Origin: Thermomicrobiales bacterium
Lineage (GTDB): Bacteria > Chloroflexota > Chloroflexia > Thermomicrobiales > UBA6265
Reading direction: 5' to 3'
Assembly: GCA_030447415.1 (NCBI GenBank)
Contig: JAUJOZ010000021.1
Coordinates: 1-64,000, forward strand
Length of the DNA: 64,000 nt
The notes under the pieces are model-generated. The model did not search any database and was not told the origin of the DNA. It saw nothing but the letters and a program-made list of their open reading frames with translations. Numbering within the stretch: position 1 is the stretch's first letter; each line of letters opens with the position of its first letter. This document shows positions 1,773 through 26,303 of this stretch, one piece after another. The position numbers and the translations under genes were made by a program.

Positions 1773-2231
1773 TGTCGCCACCTTTGGCGCTCGCGCGCTC
1801 AAGCGTCTGTGCGGGCCGTCTGTGAGGCGCGCCGCGTGGCGGCCTATGACCTGCCGACTCTGAAGCGGATCGGTCTGCCGCCTAGGGAACCGTACCCCGC
1901 CGCGGTCCGGAGCGGCGGGGGCCGCAGTCCGCGACCCCCCGGGCGGAGCAGCCCGGGGGCGATCCACCCCCAGCCGAGGCAGTATAGCGAGTCGGCCGGA
2001 ATGCTGGCAAGAATCTTGCTGACGGCGGCCGTCCAGCCTGCGCGTAACGAACATGACACCGGGGTGTCCCTCCGCCCCGCTGCTCCCCGCCGGTAAACGG
2101 CGGGAGCGGAGGTAGAACGCCTGTACAAGCGCGTCGGCGGTTGCTATCATCGCTTCCGGCCGGCGAGCGAGAATAGGCTCACCAGCGGGCCGACGCTCAC
2201 CTTGGGGTCCTGCGCGGCGCGGTGGGGCACG
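1773..2231. other. Divergent intergenic region, rpoN / site-2 protease
   Basis: This stretch separates two divergent genes and holds no convincing gene. It contains a strong hairpin at 2082-2107 (GCTCCCCGCCG, loop GTAAA, CGGCGGGAGC, one bulged C), about 125 bases upstream of the protease start. That could be a 5' leader structure or an attenuator. No clear -35/-10 pair was found for either gene. Confidence 0.4.
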
Positions 2232-3612: not shown

Positions 3613-4059
3613 ATGAAGGTTTCGTCCCGAGGTGAATACGGCGTCCGGGCCATGGTGGCGCTCGCCCACCAGTACGGCGCGGCCCCAATGTCGATCACGG
3701 CGGTCGCCAAGGCCTCCGCCGTCCCTCCGGCCTACTTGGAGCAGTTGATCGGGCCTCTGCGCCGAGCCGGGCTTGTCGAAAGCACCCGGGGGGCTCACGG
3801 CGGCTACCGGCTCGCGCGGTCGCCGGAATTGGTCCGCGTCGGCGAGGTCTACCGGGTGATGGAAGGCCCGGTGGCACCGATGGACTGCGTCTCCGAGGAC
3901 CCGGCCGACCAGACCTGCCCCTTGATAGACGGCTGCGAGACGCGCCCGGTGTGGCTCAAGGTCCGCGACTCCATCGTCGAGACGCTCGACTCGATGACCC
4001 TCGCCGACCTGATCAAGGATGGCCCGGCCCGTCGGCCGGTCGGGTCTGCTACCTCCTAG
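3613..4059 (+). CDS. Rrf2-family transcriptional regulator
   Basis: Winged-helix regulator of 148 aa. The N-terminus MKVSSRGEYGVRAMVALAHQ and the HTH (ITAVAKASAVPPAYLEQLIGPLRRAGLVESTRGAHGGYRLAR) are diagnostic of Rrf2. Three cysteines (DC, TC, GC; spacing CX8CX5C) lie where IscR binds a [2Fe-2S] cluster, so an iron-sulfur-sensing repressor is plausible. The next gene is a cysteine desulfurase, 113 bases downstream, which matches an IscR-like role controlling Fe-S or sulfur supply. ATG 3613 begins the conserved N-terminus; 13 codons of open frame upstream were not used. A CymR-like role in cysteine metabolism is the alternative. Confidence 0.9.
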   Translation: MKVSSRGEYGVRAMVALAHQYGAAPMSITAVAKASAVPPAYLEQLIGPLRRAGLVESTRGAHGGYRLARSPELVRVGEVYRVMEGPVAPMDCVSEDPADQTCPLIDGCETRPVWLKVRDSIVETLDSMTLADLIKDGPARRPVGSATS

Positions 4060-4172
4060 CCGCCCATCCCTTCCTGAGTTTTTCGCGTGCGAGGTGTGTC
4101 CCGAGGGGCGACGGGTGATCCCCCGTTCGAATCCTGGCGGCCGCCCTCATCGCCACCTTTCGGAGTCTCACG

Positions 4173-5381
4173 ATGTCCTTCTCGATCCCGTTCGCGCTGC
4201 AGCCTGACGACACCATTTACCTGGACCATGCCGCCACAACACCGGTCGACCCAGAAGTTGTCGCGGCGATGCTGCCCTACTTCACCGCGCGCTTCGGTAA
4301 CCCTTCCAGCATCTACCGGCTTGGCCAGGAGGGACGCGCCGCGCTCGACCGGGCGCGGGACACGGTCGCCGGCGTCCTCAACTGCCAGCCGGCCGAGATC
4401 ATCTTCACCAGCGGCGCCTCGGAGAGCGACAACCTCGCGCTCAAAGGCGTCGCCTGGCAGCGCCGTCTGCGGCAACCAGATGGCCCCCCGCCCCATGTCG
4501 TCACCACCCGGATCGAGCACCATGCGGTACTGCACAGCGCGGAGGACCTCGAGCGGCAGGGTTTCGCCGTCACCTACGTCCCGTGCGACGCCGAAGGGTT
4601 CGTCGGCGTTGAGGACGTCGCCGCGGCGTTGCGTCCGGAAACCTGCCTGATCTCGGTCATGTACGCCAACAACGAGGTGGGAGCGATTCAGCCGATCGCC
4701 GCGATCGGCGCACTGGCCCGCTCCTGCGGCATCCCGTGTCACACCGATGCCGTTCAAGCCGCCGGTGCGCTGCCGCTCGACGTCGAGGCCCTCCACGTCG
4801 ACCTCCTGGCGCTGTCGGCCCACAAGTTCTATGGCCCGAAGGGCGTCGGCCTGCTCTATGTCCGGCGTGGCACGCCGATCGCCTTCCAGCAGCAGGGGGG
4901 CGGACAGGAGAGTGGCCGCCGCGGTGGGACGGAGAACGTCCCGCTCGTCGTCGGTATGGCCGTCGCCTTAGAGAAAGCCGATCGCCTACGCGACGCGTAC
5001 AACGTCCACTGCGCCGCGCTTCGCGACCGGCTGCTCGCCGGCATCATGGAAGCCATCCCGGAGGCGGCGATCAACGGCCCACGGGACTCGTCGCGGCGCC
5101 TGGCGAACAACCTCAACGCTGCCATCCCCGGCGTCCAGGGCGAGACGGTGCTCCTCAGCCTCGACATGCAGGGGATTGCCGCCTCCGCGGGATCGGCATG
5201 CACCACCGGCAATTCGGAGCCGAGCCACGTCCTCCGGGCGATGGGCCTGCCCGAGGAGCGGTGCCGCGCCAGCCTGCGCTTCACCATCGGCCGCGACACG
5301 ACCGCGGAAGAGATTGACGAGACGGTCGAGGTCCTGGCCGACGCCGTGGCGCGGGTGCGCCAGTTTGCGGAGGTGATCTAG
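4173..5381 (+). CDS. Cysteine desulfurase (NifS/IscS class)
   Basis: PLP enzyme (402 aa) that removes sulfur from cysteine as an enzyme-bound persulfide for Fe-S cluster or thiolation pathways. The family start IYLDHAATTPVDPEV is present. The PLP-lysine motif SAHKFYGPKGVGLLYVR and the mobile catalytic Cys loop (SAGSACTTGNSEPSHVLRAMG) are intact. The long SAC loop places it in the IscS/NifS group rather than SufS. It lies downstream of the Rrf2 gene on the same strand. No IscU, IscA or thiI follows within the window, so the sulfur acceptor is unknown. Confidence 0.93.
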   Translation: MSFSIPFALQPDDTIYLDHAATTPVDPEVVAAMLPYFTARFGNPSSIYRLGQEGRAALDRARDTVAGVLNCQPAEIIFTSGASESDNLALKGVAWQRRLRQPDGPPPHVVTTRIEHHAVLHSAEDLERQGFAVTYVPCDAEGFVGVEDVAAALRPETCLISVMYANNEVGAIQPIAAIGALARSCGIPCHTDAVQAAGALPLDVEALHVDLLALSAHKFYGPKGVGLLYVRRGTPIAFQQQGGGQESGRRGGTENVPLVVGMAVALEKADRLRDAYNVHCAALRDRLLAGIMEAIPEAAINGPRDSSRRLANNLNAAIPGVQGETVLLSLDMQGIAASAGSACTTGNSEPSHVLRAMGLPEERCRASLRFTIGRDTTAEEIDETVEVLADAVARVRQFAEVI

Positions 5382-5456
5382 CGCGGCGCGGTCAAGCGGT
5401 GGTCGGGCGGCCTCCCTGCCACCCTGTGCCGCGGCAGCGTGCGAACCCAGCCTGGA

Positions 5457-5882
5457 CTAGGGGACCGGGCGGCGATCCGCGAGGGCCTCGTCTCCCACCA
5501 ACCCCGGGACGTGCACGACGAAGTGCAGGCAGTCCGTCGAACTGGACACGAATGTGTGCGCTTCACCCGGTTCGACGACCAGCACGTCGCCCGCATCCAA
5601 CCGCACGATCTCCCGCTCGATCCGCACGTCCGACCAGCCACGGGCAACCAAGTAGACCTCAGTCAGGCGTGCGTGCATGTGGGGCGCGTCGAGGCCCTCG
5701 AATGCGTAGCCAATGGAAATGGTCAGGTCCGAGTTCCACCGGCCGGCGTACCAGCCTTTGCGTACAGCCGGGGCGGCGCGATCACGCCGCATGCGGCCGG
5801 CCTCCACTGCGCCACGAGCCTCGCGGCCACCCTTTGCCGATTTGGCGCCGCGAGCGATGAGTACGCTCCGCATCACAACCAA
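5457..5882 (-). CDS. Cupin-domain protein
   Basis: Small single-cupin protein (up to 141 aa). The double motif is visible: HMHARLTEVYLVARG gives two His and one Glu metal ligands, and the second motif, DAGDVLVVEPGEAHTF, supplies the last His. Such proteins bind a metal and a small ligand; the ligand is not evident. The start is uncertain: the N-terminal ~30 residues are low-complexity and basic, and an internal ATG at 5792 begins closer to the fold. It is the last gene of the minus-strand cluster, 79 bases beyond scpB. Confidence 0.7.
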   Translation of the reverse strand: MVVMRSVLIARGAKSAKGGREARGAVEAGRMRRDRAAPAVRKGWYAGRWNSDLTISIGYAFEGLDAPHMHARLTEVYLVARGWSDVRIEREIVRLDAGDVLVVEPGEAHTFVSSSTDCLHFVVHVPGLVGDEALADRRPVP

Positions 5883-5961
5883 GACTCGCTACGGCGCTCC
5901 GCCAGCCGCCGTCCTCAGATCGCCCAGGCTCGAGCCCCGTCCGTCCGGCCCTCGGACCCGG

Positions 5962-6672
5962 CTACGGTGACCCGCGTTCCGCGCCCTCCGGGTCGAGCCC
6001 AGCGGCGGCGACCGCCGCATCCAAGACCACCCGAGCGTCCCGGCCCTCGACCTCGCCCAGCGGCGGCAGCGCGTCCAGCGAGGACAGGCCGAAGTGGCGG
6101 AGGAAGTCGGGCGTCGTCCCGTACTGGATCGGGTTGCCAACCGTCGGCAATCGTCCGGTCGCCTCGATCAATCCCCGGCCGTGGAGCGTGGCGAGGACCC
6201 CCGCGCAATCGACTCCCCGCACGGCCTCGATCTCCGCCCGCGTGACCGGTTGTTGGTAGGCGATGATCGCCAGTGTCTCCAACGCGGCCGCTGAGAGGCG
6301 TGCTTCTCGGTCCAGGCCGAGGAAGCGCCGGATGTGGCCGGCGAAGCGGGGTGCGCTGGCCAGCTGAACGGTCCCCCGGTGCCGCTGGATGACCCAGCCG
6401 CGGTCGCTCGTCGCCTCCAGCGCGGCGAGAGCCGCTTCGACGTGGGCGACGTGGACCCCGGCGCCACGGGCCAACTCTTCCGTCGTCACCGGCTGCGGCG
6501 CGACAAGCAGCAACGCCTCGATCAAGGCCTCGAGCTCGGGACCAGGCGGTGGTCCATCGAGAACCTCCAACGGTAGCGCGGACTGCCCGTTCTCGTCCCC
6601 GTTCGGGCGGAACTCGGTCGTCATGGCCGCCGGGATCGGGCGTTGGCGCTGGCCCATCGCGCGGGGTGCCAC
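5962..6672 (-). CDS. scpB: Segregation and condensation protein B
   Basis: Kleisin-associated winged-helix protein (236 aa) of the SMC-ScpAB condensin, required for chromosome compaction and segregation. The conserved segments LEALIEALLLVAPQPVTTEELA, RLSAAALETLAIIAYQQPVTRAEIEAVRGV and the C-terminal TVGNPIQYGTTPDFLRHFGL are all present. It begins 4 bases after the scpA stop. An internal ATG at 6624 would remove 16 unconserved residues and is a reasonable alternative start. Confidence 0.93.
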   Translation of the reverse strand: MAPRAMGQRQRPIPAAMTTEFRPNGDENGQSALPLEVLDGPPPGPELEALIEALLLVAPQPVTTEELARGAGVHVAHVEAALAALEATSDRGWVIQRHRGTVQLASAPRFAGHIRRFLGLDREARLSAAALETLAIIAYQQPVTRAEIEAVRGVDCAGVLATLHGRGLIEATGRLPTVGNPIQYGTTPDFLRHFGLSSLDALPPLGEVEGRDARVVLDAAVAAAGLDPEGAERGSP

Positions 6673-6676
6673 TCGG

Positions 6677-7474
6677 TCAGCCGTCCGCCGTCTGCCCGAG
6701 GACAGGCTCGTCGCCCTTGATCCCGGTGGAAGCGTCCTCCCGCACCGTGCGGCGGAGCGTGATCTCGCCGAACAAGGCGGGCTGGTCCGCCTCGATCACA
6801 CGGCGGCGGATCAGGACGAGGACGGCCAGAAAGGCGGTCAACGCCTCATCCCGCCCCTCGCACCGCGCCAGGACAGCGCGAAACCTTAGCTGGCTCCGCC
6901 CGGCGAGGCCGACCAGCACCCGCTCGATCATCTCCCGTAAGGAGACGAGCGGGCTGGCGGCGACCACGGCGCTTGGTCCCGGCACGATCGTGAGCCGGCG
7001 CCGCAGCGCCCGCGCCAGCGCGCTCGGTTGGTGGAGGGCCAGTCTTGGCGGTGCCGAAGCCGCCGGCACCGCGACGCCGCCCTCGCCGCGAGCGAAGGCG
7101 CCTTCCGCGCGCATGTCACGCACCCCGAGCAGACGGGCCGCCTCTTGCACCGCCCGGTACTCGACCAACTGGCGCACCAGATCGCCCGAGTCGCCCTCGT
7201 CCTCCACGGTGAGCGGGCGGGGCAGGAGCGAGCGGGACTTGATGAGGACGAGCCGCGCGCCGATCGTCGCGAACTCCGCCATCGTCGTCGGCGGCGCCTC
7301 CTCCATGGCGGCGAGGTGCGCCAGAAACTGGTCGGTCACGGCGACGAGCGACACGTCGGTAATGGCCAGCTGGTGCCGCTCGATCAGACGCAGCAGCACA
7401 TCGAGCGGCCCCTCGAACGTGGGGAGCCTCAACTGGTAGCCGTTCAAGACGGCGTCGGGCGCGGTGATGCTCAC
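6677..7474 (-). CDS. scpA: Segregation and condensation protein A
   Basis: Kleisin subunit (265 aa) bridging SMC heads. The N-terminal signature YQLRLPTFEGPLDVLLRLIERHQLAITDVSLVAVTDQFL is typical, followed by the EFATIGARLVLIKSRSLLP helix. The C-terminal winged helix is present (RDEALTAFLAVLVLIRRRVIEADQPALFGEI). It forms a tight pair with scpB. No smc gene is in the window. Confidence 0.93.
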   Translation of the reverse strand: MSITAPDAVLNGYQLRLPTFEGPLDVLLRLIERHQLAITDVSLVAVTDQFLAHLAAMEEAPPTTMAEFATIGARLVLIKSRSLLPRPLTVEDEGDSGDLVRQLVEYRAVQEAARLLGVRDMRAEGAFARGEGGVAVPAASAPPRLALHQPSALARALRRRLTIVPGPSAVVAASPLVSLREMIERVLVGLAGRSQLRFRAVLARCEGRDEALTAFLAVLVLIRRRVIEADQPALFGEITLRRTVREDASTGIKGDEPVLGQTADG

Positions 7475-7578
7475 AGTGTCCCACAGTCTACGCGATCCAA
7501 CCGCCGGGCGCGGAGACTCTGACCAGCCGGCGGCCGCTGCATCGCGTTCGTGCGGTCCACCGAGGTAGCGGACACCGC

Positions 7579-21565: not shown

Positions 21566-22274
21566 GTGGCCTACGACCGTCGACAACATGTCCAGTACTG
21601 GATCGGGTTTCACCGGGTGCCGTTCGTCGGGCCGACGCGGATCGGACGACTGATGCAGCACTTCGGCGATCTGGGACGGGCTTGGCAGGCCTCACCGGTG
21701 AACTGCGGGCGGTGTTGGACGAGCGATCGGTGGAGAGTCTCGTCAAGACCCGCGCGGGTTTGTCGCTGGATGATGAGATGGCCCGGATCGAGCGCCTGGG
21801 GATCACCGTCCTCACCCGCGAAGACGACGACTACCCGAGACTCCTCGCCCAGATCCCAGCACCGCCTTCGGTGCTCTACGTCAAAGGCGAGCTTCTGCCG
21901 GAGGACGCGGTGGCGGTCGCCATCGTCGGCACCCGGCGTTTGACCTCGTACGGCCGCGAGGTCACCGGCCGTCTGGCGGGCGACCTGGCACGGGCGGGGG
22001 TGACGGTCGTCTCCGGACTGGCGCGGGGGATCGACGCCGTGGCGCACCAGGCGGCGCTGCGCGCGGGCGGCCGCACCATCGCCGTGCTCGGTAGCGGCCC
22101 GAACGTCATCTACCCACCGGAGCACCGCCACCTGGCCGCCGAGATTGTCGAGAACGGCGCCTTGGTGTCCGACTATCCACCAGACCGCAAGCCCGACGCG
22201 CCGAACTTCCCGGCCCGGAATCGCATCATCTCCGGCTTGACCCTCGGCGTCATCGTCGTGGAGGTCCCGGCCCG
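21566..22274 (+). pseudogene. dprA: dprA, 5' part (interrupted by mobile element; also frameshifted)
   Basis: DprA loads RecA on incoming single-stranded DNA during natural transformation. GTG 21566 (preceded by AAGGGGGG) starts QYWIGFHRVPFVGPTRIGRLMQHFGDLGRAWQAS. One base is missing at about 21697, where CCGGTG should read CCGGGTG, and the next frame continues with GELRAVLDERS. The Rossmann core is intact: VAIVGTRRLTSYG, VVSGLARGIDAVAHQAAL, AVLGSGPNVIYPPEH and FPARNRIISGLTLGVIVVEVPAR. The last codon (CG-N, 22273-22274) is split by the element and resumes at 25922. Adding back one base, the two parts give exactly 364 codons, normal DprA length. In the integrated state the frame runs into the element and stops at 22461. 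Confidence 0.92.
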
Positions 22275-22293
22275 TATGGGTGTCCGGCAATAC
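22256..22293. mobile_element. attL junction
   Basis: Host dprA sequence ends at CG (22273-22274). Element DNA follows with TATG and then the 15-bp arm GGTGTCCGGCAATAC (22279-22293), which is the near-exact inverse of the arm at the right junction. Confidence 0.85.
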
Positions 22294-22354
22294 AACGTCC
22301 CTCGTCCGGCTACGGTTCAAGGATGCCGATATGGCTGCGGTTGCGGCAAACTGA
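22275..22354 (+). other. Orphan 3' end of the integrase gene, separated by integration
   Basis: When the element is circularised, the integrase frame ...AGRQS continues through the core into this segment: VWVSGNTTSLVRLRFKDADMAAVAAN, stop TGA at 22352-22354. It is therefore the native C-terminus of the recombinase, left at the other end of the element after insertion. A hairpin terminator follows at 22379. Confidence 0.75.
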
Positions 22355-22378
22355 CCGGGCTACCAGCGCGAGGAGGAC

Positions 22379-22412
22379 GAAGCCCCGGCATTGGACCTCC
22401 CGCCGGGGCTTC
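22379..22412. terminator. Bidirectional terminator inside the element
   Basis: GAAGCCCCGGC (22379-22389) and GCCGGGGCTTC (22402-22412) form a perfect 11-bp stem with a 12-nt loop. It lies 4 bases past the stop of the minus-strand cargo operon and 25 bases past the native integrase stop, so it would end both transcripts in the circular form. Confidence 0.7.
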
Positions 22413-22416
22413 CGTG

Positions 22417-23112
22417 CTAAGGCCAATGCTCGGGTTCTTTGATTCCCTGCATCCAGCCTGATCCGGACGTGCCTTCAACCATCAACCAGAACCGTACTTC
22501 TTGCGCCCCATGACCATCGTGATAACTGATCCAGCCGTTGAAATGATCTTTCTTCCATCCCGCAAACGTAGTCCCCGATGGAGTGATCTCGTCCTTCAAT
22601 CCGCTATTCTCGAAATACTCTCTTGGCATTTTGACGAGCATTTCGGCATGCTCGAACGGGTTTAGGGCATGAATAGGGTCCGATCTTGGCGTCATCTTTC
22701 CCCACTCACCGTTGACTACCGTATCCGATCCCGGTGGGAACAGGAACATCTGAACATGCCGAGCAACTGCCGGACCCTCGTTGAATATGGGAATGGTGAT
22801 TTCATATTGAAAACTGCCAAAGACATCGGGAGGCATACTGAAAATCCAGTCCGTGAGTAGGATTACCCTGGCCGACTTTGATTCAGCGTGTGCCGCTATC
22901 TGATGCTGAACTGTCTGTTCAGCCGCTTTAGCCGACACTTGCGCAGCACTGGCCGCATCCTCAGTTGCCACCCTCATTGCCTTGTTCGACTCGGCCATAG
23001 ACACGTTCGCGTCGGCCGTCCGCTTGGTTTCCGCGTAGGACAGCGCGCTGACGACGAGAGCGAGAAACGCCATGCAGACCGCCGCGAGGGCGATCCAGTC
23101 CGAAACGTCCAT
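22417..23112 (-). CDS. Membrane protein of unknown function (element cargo)
   Basis: 231-aa protein with one N-terminal membrane helix (WIALAAVCMAFLALVVSALSY). A likely coiled coil of about 45 residues follows (ETKRTADANVSMAESNKAMRVATEDAASAAQVSAKAAEQ), then a C-terminal beta-rich domain (YEITIPIFNEGPAVARHVQMFLFPPGS...GWISYHDGHGAQEVRFWLMVEG) resembling an Ig-like fold. It begins 5 bases after the stop of the DUF4145-like gene, so the two form one operon. No family was recognised. Composition is less GC-rich than the host. Confidence 0.75.
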   Translation of the reverse strand: MDVSDWIALAAVCMAFLALVVSALSYAETKRTADANVSMAESNKAMRVATEDAASAAQVSAKAAEQTVQHQIAAHAESKSARVILLTDWIFSMPPDVFGSFQYEITIPIFNEGPAVARHVQMFLFPPGSDTVVNGEWGKMTPRSDPIHALNPFEHAEMLVKMPREYFENSGLKDEITPSGTTFAGWKKDHFNGWISYHDGHGAQEVRFWLMVEGTSGSGWMQGIKEPEHWP

Positions 23113-23117
23113 AGTCG

Positions 23118-23819
23118 CTACCGACGACGAACCGGGTACTCATCGCGGGCACCACCATCGACCTTACCGACAGGCTTTGGATTGGGCGGGTTTCCGGGCA
23201 CGGCTGTGCCTGAGATAGCGACAGCATCCGGCGTCGCCGGCACCAGCATCGCCGGAAACTCGTACAGAAGTCGCAGGATCATTTCAATGAACGTGATAAG
23301 CAGCATGGCGTCTTGTTCGCCCATGACCCCTAATTCGTGGGTGGCATCGTTACCCCGGTCCTTGATCCTGCCCAACCAGCCCTTACCCTGGGGCGGGGCG
23401 AACATCTTGGCCGCGAGGTATTCGACGTACTCAAAGAACCGCTTTCCCCGCTCGTATACATCCCCTTGGTCTACCGCGAGGTCAACGAGCATCTTTCGGC
23501 AAACCAGCACGCAAGCCGTGTCAGCCCCAATCCCCGCGCTTTGGCGGGCTTCCTCATAGAGCCGGGCAACGCCGTCCGGAACACTTGCAATGGGTCTACC
23601 GGGCGGTGCCTTTGGAAACTGGACGGGACCGCCATTTCGATGTTTACCGAAGAAGGTAGGGAAATCGCACTGGTGGCATAGCCTGATCGTGCCGTTGTGG
23701 CTGGCGTACCAGCCACGATCCGACGCTACCAGGTTGCCCCAATGGGCACAAGGAAAACTCTTCGACGCTACGTTCTTGACGTCCTGCCAACCCTCAGGCC
23801 GACCCCATCCCTTATTCAT
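23118..23819 (-). CDS. DUF4145-like protein (element cargo)
   Basis: 233-aa protein. The C-terminal part has the DUF4145 pattern: helix with CRKMLVDLAVDQGD, then LGRIKDRGNDATHELGVMGEQDAMLLITFIEMILRLLYEFP, including the G-N-x-x-x-H motif. The N-terminus carries Cys/His residues (FPCAHWGNLV...LCHQCDF) that may bind zinc. DUF4145 occurs in restriction-type ATPases and in stand-alone proteins near defence genes; its function is not established. ATG 23819 is used because the upstream open frame overlaps the divergent XRE gene. It is the first gene of the two-gene module. Confidence 0.75.
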   Translation of the reverse strand: MNKGWGRPEGWQDVKNVASKSFPCAHWGNLVASDRGWYASHNGTIRLCHQCDFPTFFGKHRNGGPVQFPKAPPGRPIASVPDGVARLYEEARQSAGIGADTACVLVCRKMLVDLAVDQGDVYERGKRFFEYVEYLAAKMFAPPQGKGWLGRIKDRGNDATHELGVMGEQDAMLLITFIEMILRLLYEFPAMLVPATPDAVAISGTAVPGNPPNPKPVGKVDGGARDEYPVRRR

Positions 23820-23899
23820 GTTGGCGCCTTGCCACGACGAAAACGGGGCAGGCGCGGGAGGCGCTGATCCTACCACGGCGGCGACCGCTCCCGACGTGG

Positions 23900-23905
23900 T
23901 ATAAT
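23900..23905 (+). promoter_or_regulatory. TATAAT -10 element in the divergent control region of the element
   Basis: A perfect TATAAT lies 47 bases upstream of the XRE start in the 132-base space between the divergent cargo and XRE-integrase operons. No good -35 hexamer is visible at 17 bases. An adjacent AT-rich patch could also serve a minus-strand promoter for the cargo. Confidence 0.45.
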
Positions 23906-23951
23906 TAGTGCTGAAGTGGTGCAGTTTTGCAAAGCTTAGCGGGGGCGCAGG

Positions 23952-24161
23952 ATGGAACCGATACGGCTTGCCGAATGGCGGCGGCGCCGCTTCCTCAGCC
24001 AGGACGAATTGGCCGAGCGATCCGGCGTCAGCAAGCGGGCAATCGTGGCCCTCGAATCGGAGCAGCCCCCGCGACCGCAGGGGCGCACCGTCCGCAAGCT
24101 TGCAGAGGCATTGGGCGTTGAACCGGCGGTCCTCTTTCGGGCACCGCACGAGGGGGAATAG
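23952..24161 (+). CDS. XRE-family HTH regulator of the element
   Basis: 69-aa single-domain Cro/CI-type DNA-binding protein: LAEWRRRRFLSQDELAERSGVSKRAIVALESEQPPRPQGRTVRKLAEALGVEPAVLF. It is transcribed away from the cargo operon and ends 2 bases before the integrase start, so it is probably co-expressed with the recombinase. It probably represses the divergent control region and thereby excision or cargo expression. Confidence 0.88.
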   Translation: MEPIRLAEWRRRRFLSQDELAERSGVSKRAIVALESEQPPRPQGRTVRKLAEALGVEPAVLFRAPHEGE

Positions 24162-25091
24162 CCGTGGCCGAGAAAGCCGCCATCCTCGCCCGCGTTTCGA
24201 CCAAGGGCCAAGAGAAGAAAGAGAACCCGATTGCCGGCCAGTTGAGCAATTGCCGGGAATGGGCCGCGAGTCACGGTTACGACGTGGTAGCCGAGTTTCG
24301 GGAGGTCTGCTCAGGCTTCTCGTGGGTATTCGACCGGCAGACCGTCAGCGACCTTTGGAAGGTGGTAGAGGCCAAGCAAATTACCGTCGTCGTCGTGGAT
24401 GATATGGATCGCTTGGCCCGCGAACCCGATTTCCAAACCTATTTGACCGTTGACGCGGCCAAGCACGGGGTACGGATCGAAGCCGTCGCCGGCAACGCCG
24501 ACGATTCGTTTGAGGGCCGGCTGGTTACGCACGTCACCAAGCTTTACGCCAAATACGAGAACACCAAGCGCAAGCACCGGACGGAACGTGGGCGCAAGGC
24601 GCGGGCGGAAAGCGGCAAGCCGATCAGCGCCAGCCTTCCCTACGGCTACCGCTGGTTCGACCCCGAGCCGCGCAAGAAAACCCGGATGATCGTTCACGAG
24701 GGCGAAGCCGCGATTGTTCGGAGAATCTTTGAGTGGTTGGCCAGCGGCGGAACCGCCACCAGCCTAATGAACGCGCTCAACGCCGAGGGCATCCCGAGTC
24801 CGCAAGCCCGCGAAGGCCGGCTAAACGCTTGGTCAACTCGGACCATCGGCCGAATCGTCCGGAACGACGCCTATATCGGCAAAGCGTGGGCGTTCAAGAC
24901 GGAAAGCCTCTACCAGCCAAACAAGCGGATTCGCCTTGCCAACCGGCCGGAAGCTGATAGGGTGGCTTTGCCCGAGGGCACCATCCCGGCGATTATCGAC
25001 CTCGACACCTTCACCAGGGCCGGCGAGCGGCTTATCCGGAACCGCCGCGAAGCCACGCGCAACAGCCGAAACGCGGCCCTCTACCTACTGC

Positions 25092-25311
25092 GGGACGGCT
25101 TTGCCAAGTGCCACCATTGCGGCGGCACGCTGGAGGCGTGCGTAGCGCCGAGGGGCGACCGCTATTACCGTTGCATCCCGACTCAGCGTCGAAAGCACGG
25201 TGGGACGGCTTTGCCAAGTGCCACCATTGCGGCGGCACGCTGGAGGCGTGCGTAGCGCCGAGGGGCGACCGCTATTACCGTTGCATCCCGACTCAGCGTC
25301 GAAAGCACGGT
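25092..25311 (+). repeat. Perfect 110-bp tandem duplication in the integrase gene
   Basis: Positions 25092-25201 and 25202-25311 appear identical base for base. The unit starts GGGACGGCTTTGCCAAG and ends GCACGGT. Since 110 is not divisible by three, the second copy throws the integrase out of frame, and deletion of either copy restores it. Identity of the copies suggests a very recent event or an assembly artefact. Confidence 0.9.
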
Positions 25312-25900
25312 TGCCCCTCGTGCTCGATCAAGGCCGAGGAATTGGAAAGCGGGGTTTGGGATCACGTCAAGCTAGTGCTTGAAAACCCGGCCTACATCGA
25401 ACAGCACGCGCAGCGGCAAGCCGAGGACGATACGACGGCCGACCAACTGGACACGCTCGACCGCGCTTTGGTAGGGCTTTCCCAGCAGGCGGAAAACCTC
25501 TTGGCCACGGCGGCGATGGCCATTGACGACCAATCCCGGCAATTCATCGCGGCCAAGCTGGACGATATAGCCGCGCAGCGGCGGGGACTGACCGAGCGCC
25601 GGCACACCCTCTTGGACCTCAGAGCCGCGCACCAGCGGACCAAGGTGATGCTAGCCGGCCTTTCGGACATTTCGTCAGAGCGGTACGCGGAAATCGACGC
25701 CATGACGATGGCGGAACGCCGGGACGTGCTGGCCGACTTCGAGGTAACGGTCACGGTCTACCCGAAAGACCGCCGGCCGCGTTGGGAAATTGATATGGCG
25801 TTCGATCTTTCAAGCTGGTTCGATCCGGCAACTGGTTTTCAATTGGAGGAACCCGACGACTCGCCGGATACCGTGCAAGGGTGGGAAGCCGTGCCAAGTA

Positions 25901-25925
25901 GTATTGCCGGGCGCCAGTCCGCTCC
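25901..25925. mobile_element. attR junction
   Basis: Arm GTATTGCCGGGCGCC (25901-25915), spacer AGT, core CCG (25919-25921), then dprA sequence CTCCAGCGCC. The arm inverts the one at 22279-22293. Confidence 0.85.
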
Positions 25926-26303
25926 AGCGCCCTGATCACGACCGACTTCGCCGCCGACCAGGGACGCGAAGTCTTTGCCGTCCCCGGCAACGTCCTGTCG
26001 GTCGCCAGCGAGGGGTGCAATAAGCTACTGCGCGATGGCGCAACGCTGGTGACGAGCGCCGACGACGTCCTGGAGGAGCTGCACCTCGGCCGCCGCCAGG
26101 AGCAGGTCACCGTCCAGCAGGCGCTGCCGATGGCCGAAGAGGAGCGGCGCCTCCTCGCGCTGCTGACGGCCGAGCCGCAGCACATCGACGAGATCGCCGC
26201 CGGCGCCAACCTGCCCATCGCCCAGGCCGGCGCTCTCCTCGTCACGATGGAGTTGAAGGGCCTCGTCCGCAACGCCGGGGCGCAGCACTACGCCCGGGGG
26301 TAA
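25922..26303 (+). pseudogene. dprA: dprA, 3' part
   Basis: It continues the split codon of the 5' part with SSALITTDFAADQGREVFAVPGNVLSVASEGCNKLLRDGATLVTSADDVLEEL, the conserved end of the DprA Rossmann domain. A C-terminal winged-helix domain follows (EERRLLALLTAEPQHIDEIAAGANLPIAQAGALLVTMELKGLVRN...HYARG). There is no own start near the junction, so a functional DprA cannot be made while the element is present. Confidence 0.92.

What the first reader, a model, noticed from the sequence alone, without database searches (positions are those of the whole stretch)
22273..25920. Serine-recombinase element inserted in the competence gene dprA, with a reconstructable attP/attB
The two flanks share only CCG. 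Joining host sides rebuilds a CGN Arg codon and an uninterrupted DprA core (PAR-SSALITTDFAADQGREVF), and the repaired gene is exactly 364 codons. Joining element sides rebuilds an attP with arms GTATTGCCGGGCGCC / GGTGTCCGGCAATAC inverted around a 10-bp centre whose middle is the shared CG. Mobile elements that inactivate competence genes are known (for example prophage in comK), and such insertion is thought to protect the element from being removed by transformation. A small serine-recombinase element that uses a conserved dprA site would be a clean new case.
Basis: seen in the sequence. Interest (0 to 1): 0.88.

Follow-up and report, generated by a model that had tools for sequence, protein, structure and literature searches.

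The report
Integrase element inserted in dprA
A 3.6-kb mobile DNA element has inserted itself, at one exact codon, into dprA, a bacterial gene needed to take in and recombine foreign DNA; two other bacterial genomes carry different elements at the same codon and a third, distant one a decayed version, so this codon is a recurrent landing site for such elements.

Summary
The insertion is real. A 3,647-bp element with a large serine recombinase (LSR) gene splits the genome's only dprA between core CG 22273-22274 (attL) and CG 25920-25921 (attR). Joined host sides restore ...VVEVPARSSALITTDF. Joined element sides give an attP with arms symmetric about the CG. All three readable attPs share ATTG-N13-core-N13-CAAT centred on codon positions 1-2. 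The two full LSRs are ~27-30% identical and do not group (AU p=0.027). A strict attR pattern over 84,980 species genomes hit only G006 and G503. Elements in competence genes are known; I found no report of dprA as the target.

The parts
21566..22274 (+). 5' part of dprA (N-terminal domain and most of the Rossmann fold), up to and including the core CG; read with one -1 frameshift
   Evidence: Pfam DNA_processg_A 2-169 of 212, E 3.5e-59; matches to relatives' DprA in two frames, residues 1-35 and 32-228
21688..21700 (+). -1 frameshift in dprA (CCGG where relatives need one more base)
   Evidence: frame of WQAS versus GELRAV; compared with the relative L036, which is open throughout
22273..22274 (.). 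attL core dinucleotide CG = first two bases of the dprA Arg codon
   Evidence: attP symmetry centre and restored DprA frame
22275..25921 (.). the integrated element, 3,647 bp
22279..22293 (-). left-end attP arm GGTGTCCGGCAATAC; the CAAT motif begins 13 nt after the core
   Evidence: (pair I5)
22417..23112 (-). cargo ORF, 231 aa, N-terminal hydrophobic stretch, no reliable family
   Evidence: no Pfam match over cut-off, no PADLOC or PHROG match
23118..23819 (-). cargo ORF with DUF4145 domain (ATG at 23819), like phage protein family phrog_1305
   Evidence: Pfam 8.4e-7 over cut-off; phrog_1305 7.7e-15
23952..24161 (+). XRE/Cro-type helix-turn-helix regulator, 69 aa, directly upstream of the recombinase gene
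   Evidence: Pfam HTH_3 1.1e-11
24164..25935 (+). large serine recombinase gene, interrupted; its stop codon lies 12 nt past the core, inside dprA
   Evidence: Resolvase 1e-22, Recombinase 1.4e-17, Zn ribbon 3.2e-10; PHROG 95 integrase 2.8e-64
25092..25311 (+). exact tandem duplication of 110 bp (2 copies) in the zinc-ribbon region; shifts the frame, so the product is cut to 363 aa
25901..25915 (+). right-end attP arm GTATTGCCGGGCGCC; the ATTG motif ends 13 nt before the core
25920..25921 (.). attR core dinucleotide CG
25922..26303 (+). 3' part of dprA (SALIT...VPG and winged-helix domain)
   Evidence: Pfam DprA_WH 4.5e-12; PF02481 162-211

Best explanation
This is an integrative mobile element carried by a large serine recombinase. 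The recombinase joined an attP on the circular element to an attB inside dprA by a cut-and-join at a 2-bp core, CG, the first two bases of an Arg codon just before the conserved Ser-(Gly/Ser)-Ala-Leu-Ile-Thr motif. The insertion cuts DprA inside its Rossmann fold and should abolish it. The same codon is an attB for several LSRs: at least two divergent LSR lineages (G000/G006-type with core CG, G503 with core AA) use it in Chloroflexota, with different cargo. In this genome the copy is probably fixed, because its recombinase gene has a frame-breaking duplication, and the competence pathway is decaying (dprA frameshift, comEC frameshift). Shown by sequence: boundaries, att structure, empty-site reconstruction, same-codon insertions elsewhere, lesions. 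Inferred: that recombinase did the integration, that DprA function is lost, that the copy is immobile, and that competence loss favoured the element.
For: Restored DprA and symmetric attP at one centre. Empty sites in relatives: complete uninterrupted dprA in most of 57 matched relatives and most of 375 Chloroflexota with a match. Same-codon insertions: G006 N half ends ...EAPRR, C half starts LRSGALIT directly after an LSR C-terminus that is 60% identical to ours over 25 aa; G503 LSR (Resolvase 8.8e-42) followed directly by the dprA C half, N half on another contig. attP of all three = ATTG-N13-core-N13-CAAT with the core at codon positions 1-2. Strict attR pattern hits only these elements, among loci in hand and in 84,980 genomes. 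G417: decayed recombinase-tail-like ORF, then RRSGALIT. LSRs of G000 and G503 separated on the tree, AU p=0.027. comEC in two frames in G000 but whole in 11 of 12 genomes looked at.
Against: In G006 and G503 the two dprA halves lie on different contigs of draft genomes, so their pairing is inferred. No excised or empty site in the same strain, and no reads, were seen. The 110-bp duplication and the single-base frameshifts could be assembly errors, though nine other LSR genes of this genome are full length.
Confidence: 0.9

Rival explanations
1. Assembly or binning chimera: two unrelated fragments joined in a draft genome give the look of an insertion.
For: Draft genome in 125 contigs, 86% complete, 6% contamination; unusual exact 110-bp duplication and two frameshifts nearby.
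Against: The join rebuilds the DprA motif to the base, the ends form a symmetric attP, and two other genomes, also held as separate public records, break dprA at the same codon with the same att architecture.
Confidence: 0.03
2. A regulated gene-in-pieces, like skin in sigK or the prophage in comK: the element excises on cue to restore dprA and so works as a competence switch.
For: Excision would restore dprA exactly at the junction; an XRE-type regulator lies just upstream of the recombinase; comK prophage in Listeria sits in a competence gene (PMC4774983).
Against: Recombinase frame broken, dprA and comEC each carry another frameshift, so excision would not restore competence here; no recombination directionality factor recognised.
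Confidence: 0.05
3. Competence decayed first and dprA was already dispensable; the insertion was neutral and dprA was hit only because its conserved motif offers a good attB, with no selection for blocking transformation.
For: comEC frameshift and dprA frameshift beside the insertion; the other LSR copies of this genome end at varied genes, for example hsdM.
Against: In G006, ComEC is intact although dprA is interrupted at the same codon, so insertion can precede decay; LSR targets are enriched for competence genes in a published survey (PMC10083194).
Confidence: 0.35
4. One LSR family inherited by all hosts, so that a single ancestral targeting event rather than convergence explains the shared site.
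For: The three attPs share ATTG/CAAT at the same spacing; G006 and G000 recombinase tails are clearly related.
Against: G000 and G503 LSRs share only about 27-30% identity and are split by well-supported branches; holding them together costs 23 log units, AU p=0.027.
Confidence: 0.25

Closest known systems
Prophages and elements inserted in competence genes: comK (Listeria), comYC (Streptococcus), comFA, comM, radC (Croucher et al. 2016, PMC4774983)
   Same: site-specific insertion into the coding sequence of a competence gene, same orthologous position in different species, convergent integrases on one gene
   Different: the target is dprA, which that paper does not list as a target in the passages read; the element is small and carries no recognisable phage or conjugation genes
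LSR elements surveyed by Durrant et al. 2022 (PMC10083194)
   Same: LSR with 2-bp core; distantly related LSRs converging on one gene; enrichment for competence genes; 12.4% of site-specific LSRs target a Mg-chelatase/ATP-dependent protease gene
   Different: dprA is not named in the main text; the supplementary target lists could not be read here, so it may be present there
SPbeta prophage integrase (SprA/YokA, PDB 9dxh)
   Same: closest solved large serine recombinase by sequence, E 4e-7 over residues 136-324
   Different: low identity; SPbeta inserts elsewhere (from general knowledge: spsM)
Transposons in comEC of pneumococcus and Piscirickettsia (cited in PMC12637031; PMC12955456)
   Same: mobile DNA breaking a competence gene
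   Different: different gene and, for Piscirickettsia, various transposable elements rather than one att site

Membership tests
Large serine recombinase (integrase) | N-terminal resolvase-type catalytic domain with catalytic Ser and DRxxR motif | tested here: met
   Pfam Resolvase E 1e-22; ARVST and DRLAR present
Large serine recombinase (integrase) | Recombinase domain followed by zinc-ribbon domain and coiled coil | tested here: met
   Recombinase 1.4e-17, Zn_ribbon_recom 3.2e-10, the latter in the second frame because of the 110-bp duplication
Large serine recombinase (integrase) | attP next to the recombinase gene, arms symmetric about a 2-bp core | tested here: met
   18 of 25 about CG; core inside the 3' end of the gene
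Large serine recombinase (integrase) | intact, active recombinase in this copy | tested here: not met
   reading frame broken at the duplication, 363 aa product; could still be an assembly error
Element inactivating a competence gene | interrupts the only copy of a competence gene | tested here: met
   only dprA match over cut-off in the genome is the split one
Element inactivating a competence gene | same orthologous position in other species | tested here: met
   G006 and G503, both sides; G417 3' side only
Element inactivating a competence gene | host loses transformability, element escapes removal | not testable with these tools
   needs experiment; host competence itself not established
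Prophage | phage structural or replication genes | tested here: not met
   cargo matches only DUF4145/phrog_1305, XRE regulators and integrase
Integrative conjugative or mobilizable element | relaxase or conjugation genes | tested here: not met
   no such domain among the four element ORFs scanned
Regulated excision element (skin-like) | condition-dependent precise excision restoring the gene | not testable with these tools
   the junction itself is restored in silico, but gene and recombinase carry other lesions

The most novel reading that the evidence does not exclude
The Arg/Lys codon before Ser-Gly-Ala-Leu-Ile-Thr of dprA is a general attB on which unrelated LSRs converge, with the core dinucleotide (CG or AA) set by whether the host codes Arg or Lys there, and in which dprA itself completes the recombinase gene: after integration the recombinase tail is shortened (575 to 553 aa in the single-copy reading here, 520 to 505 in G503), because a TGA hidden in dprA's Leu-Ile codons ends it. 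The tail swap could bias the enzyme between integration and excision.
Probability: 0.12. Interest if true: 0.7.

Novelty: new member of a known kind. Interest (0 to 1): 0.5.

Why it matters
It adds dprA, the loader of RecA on incoming single-stranded DNA and the most widely conserved gene of transformation, to the competence genes that mobile elements interrupt, and shows different integrase lineages using one codon of it. That supports the intragenomic-conflict view in a phylum (Chloroflexota) where it has hardly been examined, and gives predicted attP/attB pairs with CG and AA cores that can be tested directly in vitro.

Tried and rejected
LSR protein against genome contigs and viral contigs: no close relative. 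LSR against phages and plasmids: only distant matches, all under 60% identity. Closest LSRs of relatives (33-39% identity) are not beside dprA. DprA profile against viral contigs: 29 matches, none obviously cut at the insertion codon with an LSR (not examined one by one). My first join for G006 used the wrong CG and dropped one codon; corrected after comparing with the DprA alignment. G314: not an insertion but a ComM-like start fused to the DprA 3' half, probably a deletion. G157: DprA halves on two contigs meet at residue 195, another place, not pursued. G034: DprA 3' half begins two codons further on, without an LSR beside it; unresolved. Contig breaks explain G025, G048, G255 and probably G321. 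Literature: no paper found that reports an element inserted in dprA; supplements could not be read.

Full report
What is in the window. The only dprA gene of this genome is split into a 5' part (21566-22274) and a 3' part (25922-26303) by 3,647 bp. The sides share CCG (22272-22274, 25919-25921). Joining the host sides restores ISGLTLGVIVVEVPARSSALITTDFAADQ in one frame. Joining the element sides gives an attP in which 18 of 25 positions on either side of the shared CG are complementary; no other centre tried exceeds 10.

The first 35 residues of the matched DprA lie in a different frame from the rest, a -1 frameshift near 21688-21700. From GTG 21566 to the stop the repaired stretch is 1,091 nt, so it is not 364 codons. 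The recombinase gene contains an exact 110-bp tandem duplication (25092-25201 and 25202-25311) that shifts its frame; with a single copy it would read as 553 aa. The recombinase has resolvase, recombinase and zinc-ribbon domains, so it is a large serine recombinase; the nearest solved structure is the SPbeta integrase. Other element genes are an XRE-type regulator, a DUF4145 protein and an unassigned ORF. No phage structural or conjugation genes were found.

Are the lesions real? Nine other LSR genes of the same genome are full length (562-680 aa), which argues against a generally error-ridden assembly, but without reads this stays open. comEC is also in two frames in this genome, whereas 11 of 12 other genomes examined keep the domain in one piece (the twelfth, G503, gave no match). 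dprA and comEC together suggest that transformation is decaying here.

Same-site insertions elsewhere. A search of 60 relatives with the joined DprA found most dprA genes whole. G006, same family, had residues 1-230 on one contig and 224-352 on another. The 5' half ends EAPRR and runs into foreign DNA; the 3' half is entered directly from the C-terminus of an LSR that is 60% identical to ours over 25 residues. G503, same class, has an intact LSR (505 aa, Resolvase 8.8e-42) that runs into the dprA 3' half, with the 5' half ending at the same codon on another contig beside a TIR-domain gene and a primase-like gene. G417, another class of the phylum, has the dprA 3' half beginning at RRSGALIT right after a decayed ORF that looks like an LSR tail; no Pfam family confirms that tail. 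The phylum-wide sample of 400 genomes gave 375 with the DprA family; of the low scorers followed up, only G417 shows this break.

Common att structure. In G000, G006 and G503 the attP reads ATTG, 13 nt, a 2-nt core, 13 nt, CAAT, and the core is always codon positions 1-2 of the Arg or Lys that precedes Ser-(Gly/Ser)-Ala-Leu-Ile: CG, CG and AA. An intact dprA can hardly match ATTG at that place, because it would need Cys or Trp in the Val strand. A pattern of ATTG plus the dprA 3' motif matched only these elements among 146 loci and, over 84,980 species genomes, only two records: those of G006 (JACCXM010000452.1, a Chloroflexia MAG) and G503 (JADDPT010000015.1, titled Rubrobacter MAG but placed in the window's class by the genome tool). 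The strict pattern finds only this att type, so this is a lower bound. Relatives' intact genes carry CGN, AAR or another codon at this place, which predicts which LSR can enter which host.

One lineage or several? On a tree of 43 LSRs from the class, the G000 and G503 enzymes are separated by well-supported branches; forcing them together lowers the log-likelihood by 23, AU p=0.027. Both have long branches, so convergence is likely but not proven. G006 and G000 look related by their tails.

How it works, with steps marked. Shown: precise boundaries, attP/attB geometry, same-codon insertions, disrupted dprA. Established knowledge of LSRs: a 2-bp staggered cut at the core and strand exchange between attP and attB. 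Inferred: this LSR did the insertion; DprA is inactive, since the cut falls within its Rossmann fold; the copy is now stuck. A structural detail: in G000 and G503 the recombinase frame crosses the core and is closed by a TGA lying out of frame in dprA's Leu-Ile codons; in the circle it would be 22 and 15 residues longer. Whether this matters is unknown.

Comparison with the known. Insertion of elements in comK, comYC, comFA, comM and radC, at orthologous positions and by convergent integrases, is published (PMC4774983). LSR targets are enriched in competence genes, with a Mg-chelatase/ATP-dependent protease gene hit by 12.4% of site-specific LSRs (PMC10083194). I found no paper naming dprA as the target, but could not read supplementary lists. 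I therefore file this as a new member of a known kind: the target gene and its recurrent codon are new to me, the mechanism is not.

Noticed in passing
L149 (G000:C81) 883-2366: comEC of this genome is split over two frames, while 11 relatives have one uninterrupted match; comEA upstream is open.
   Followed up: yes
L106 (G000:C103:14000-21000), around 3868: Another LSR gene of the same genome ends at the very start of a type I restriction methylase gene (HsdM), which lacks its first residues: possibly an LSR insertion in a defence gene.
   Followed up: partly
L103 (G000:C79:178500-185500), around 3574: LSR frame overlaps the start of an ATPase-like ORF (GPGGAGKTT); no Pfam match; gene identity unclear.
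   Followed up: partly
G000 whole genome: About 11 LSR genes in one 5.2-Mb draft genome, an unusually rich set.
   Followed up: partly
L100 (G314:C50) 3914-4441: ORF that fuses a ComM-like AAA motif to the 3' half of DprA, as if a deletion had joined comM and dprA.
   Followed up: no
L079 and L080 (G157:C78 and C73): DprA halves on two contigs, both well inside the contigs, meeting at residue 195: a different kind of break, perhaps a rearrangement.
   Followed up: no
L077 (G034:C317) 3753-4566: DprA 3' half preceded by an unknown 144-aa ORF, two codons past the usual insertion point; no LSR visible.
   Followed up: partly
L096 (G503:C114) 4441-7503: Left end of the G503 dprA element carries a TIR-domain protein (PADLOC ThsB-like) and a primase-like protein.
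   Followed up: partly
window 1892-1980: The only tRNA call in the window has an uncertain identity (4-base anticodon gctc).
   Followed up: no
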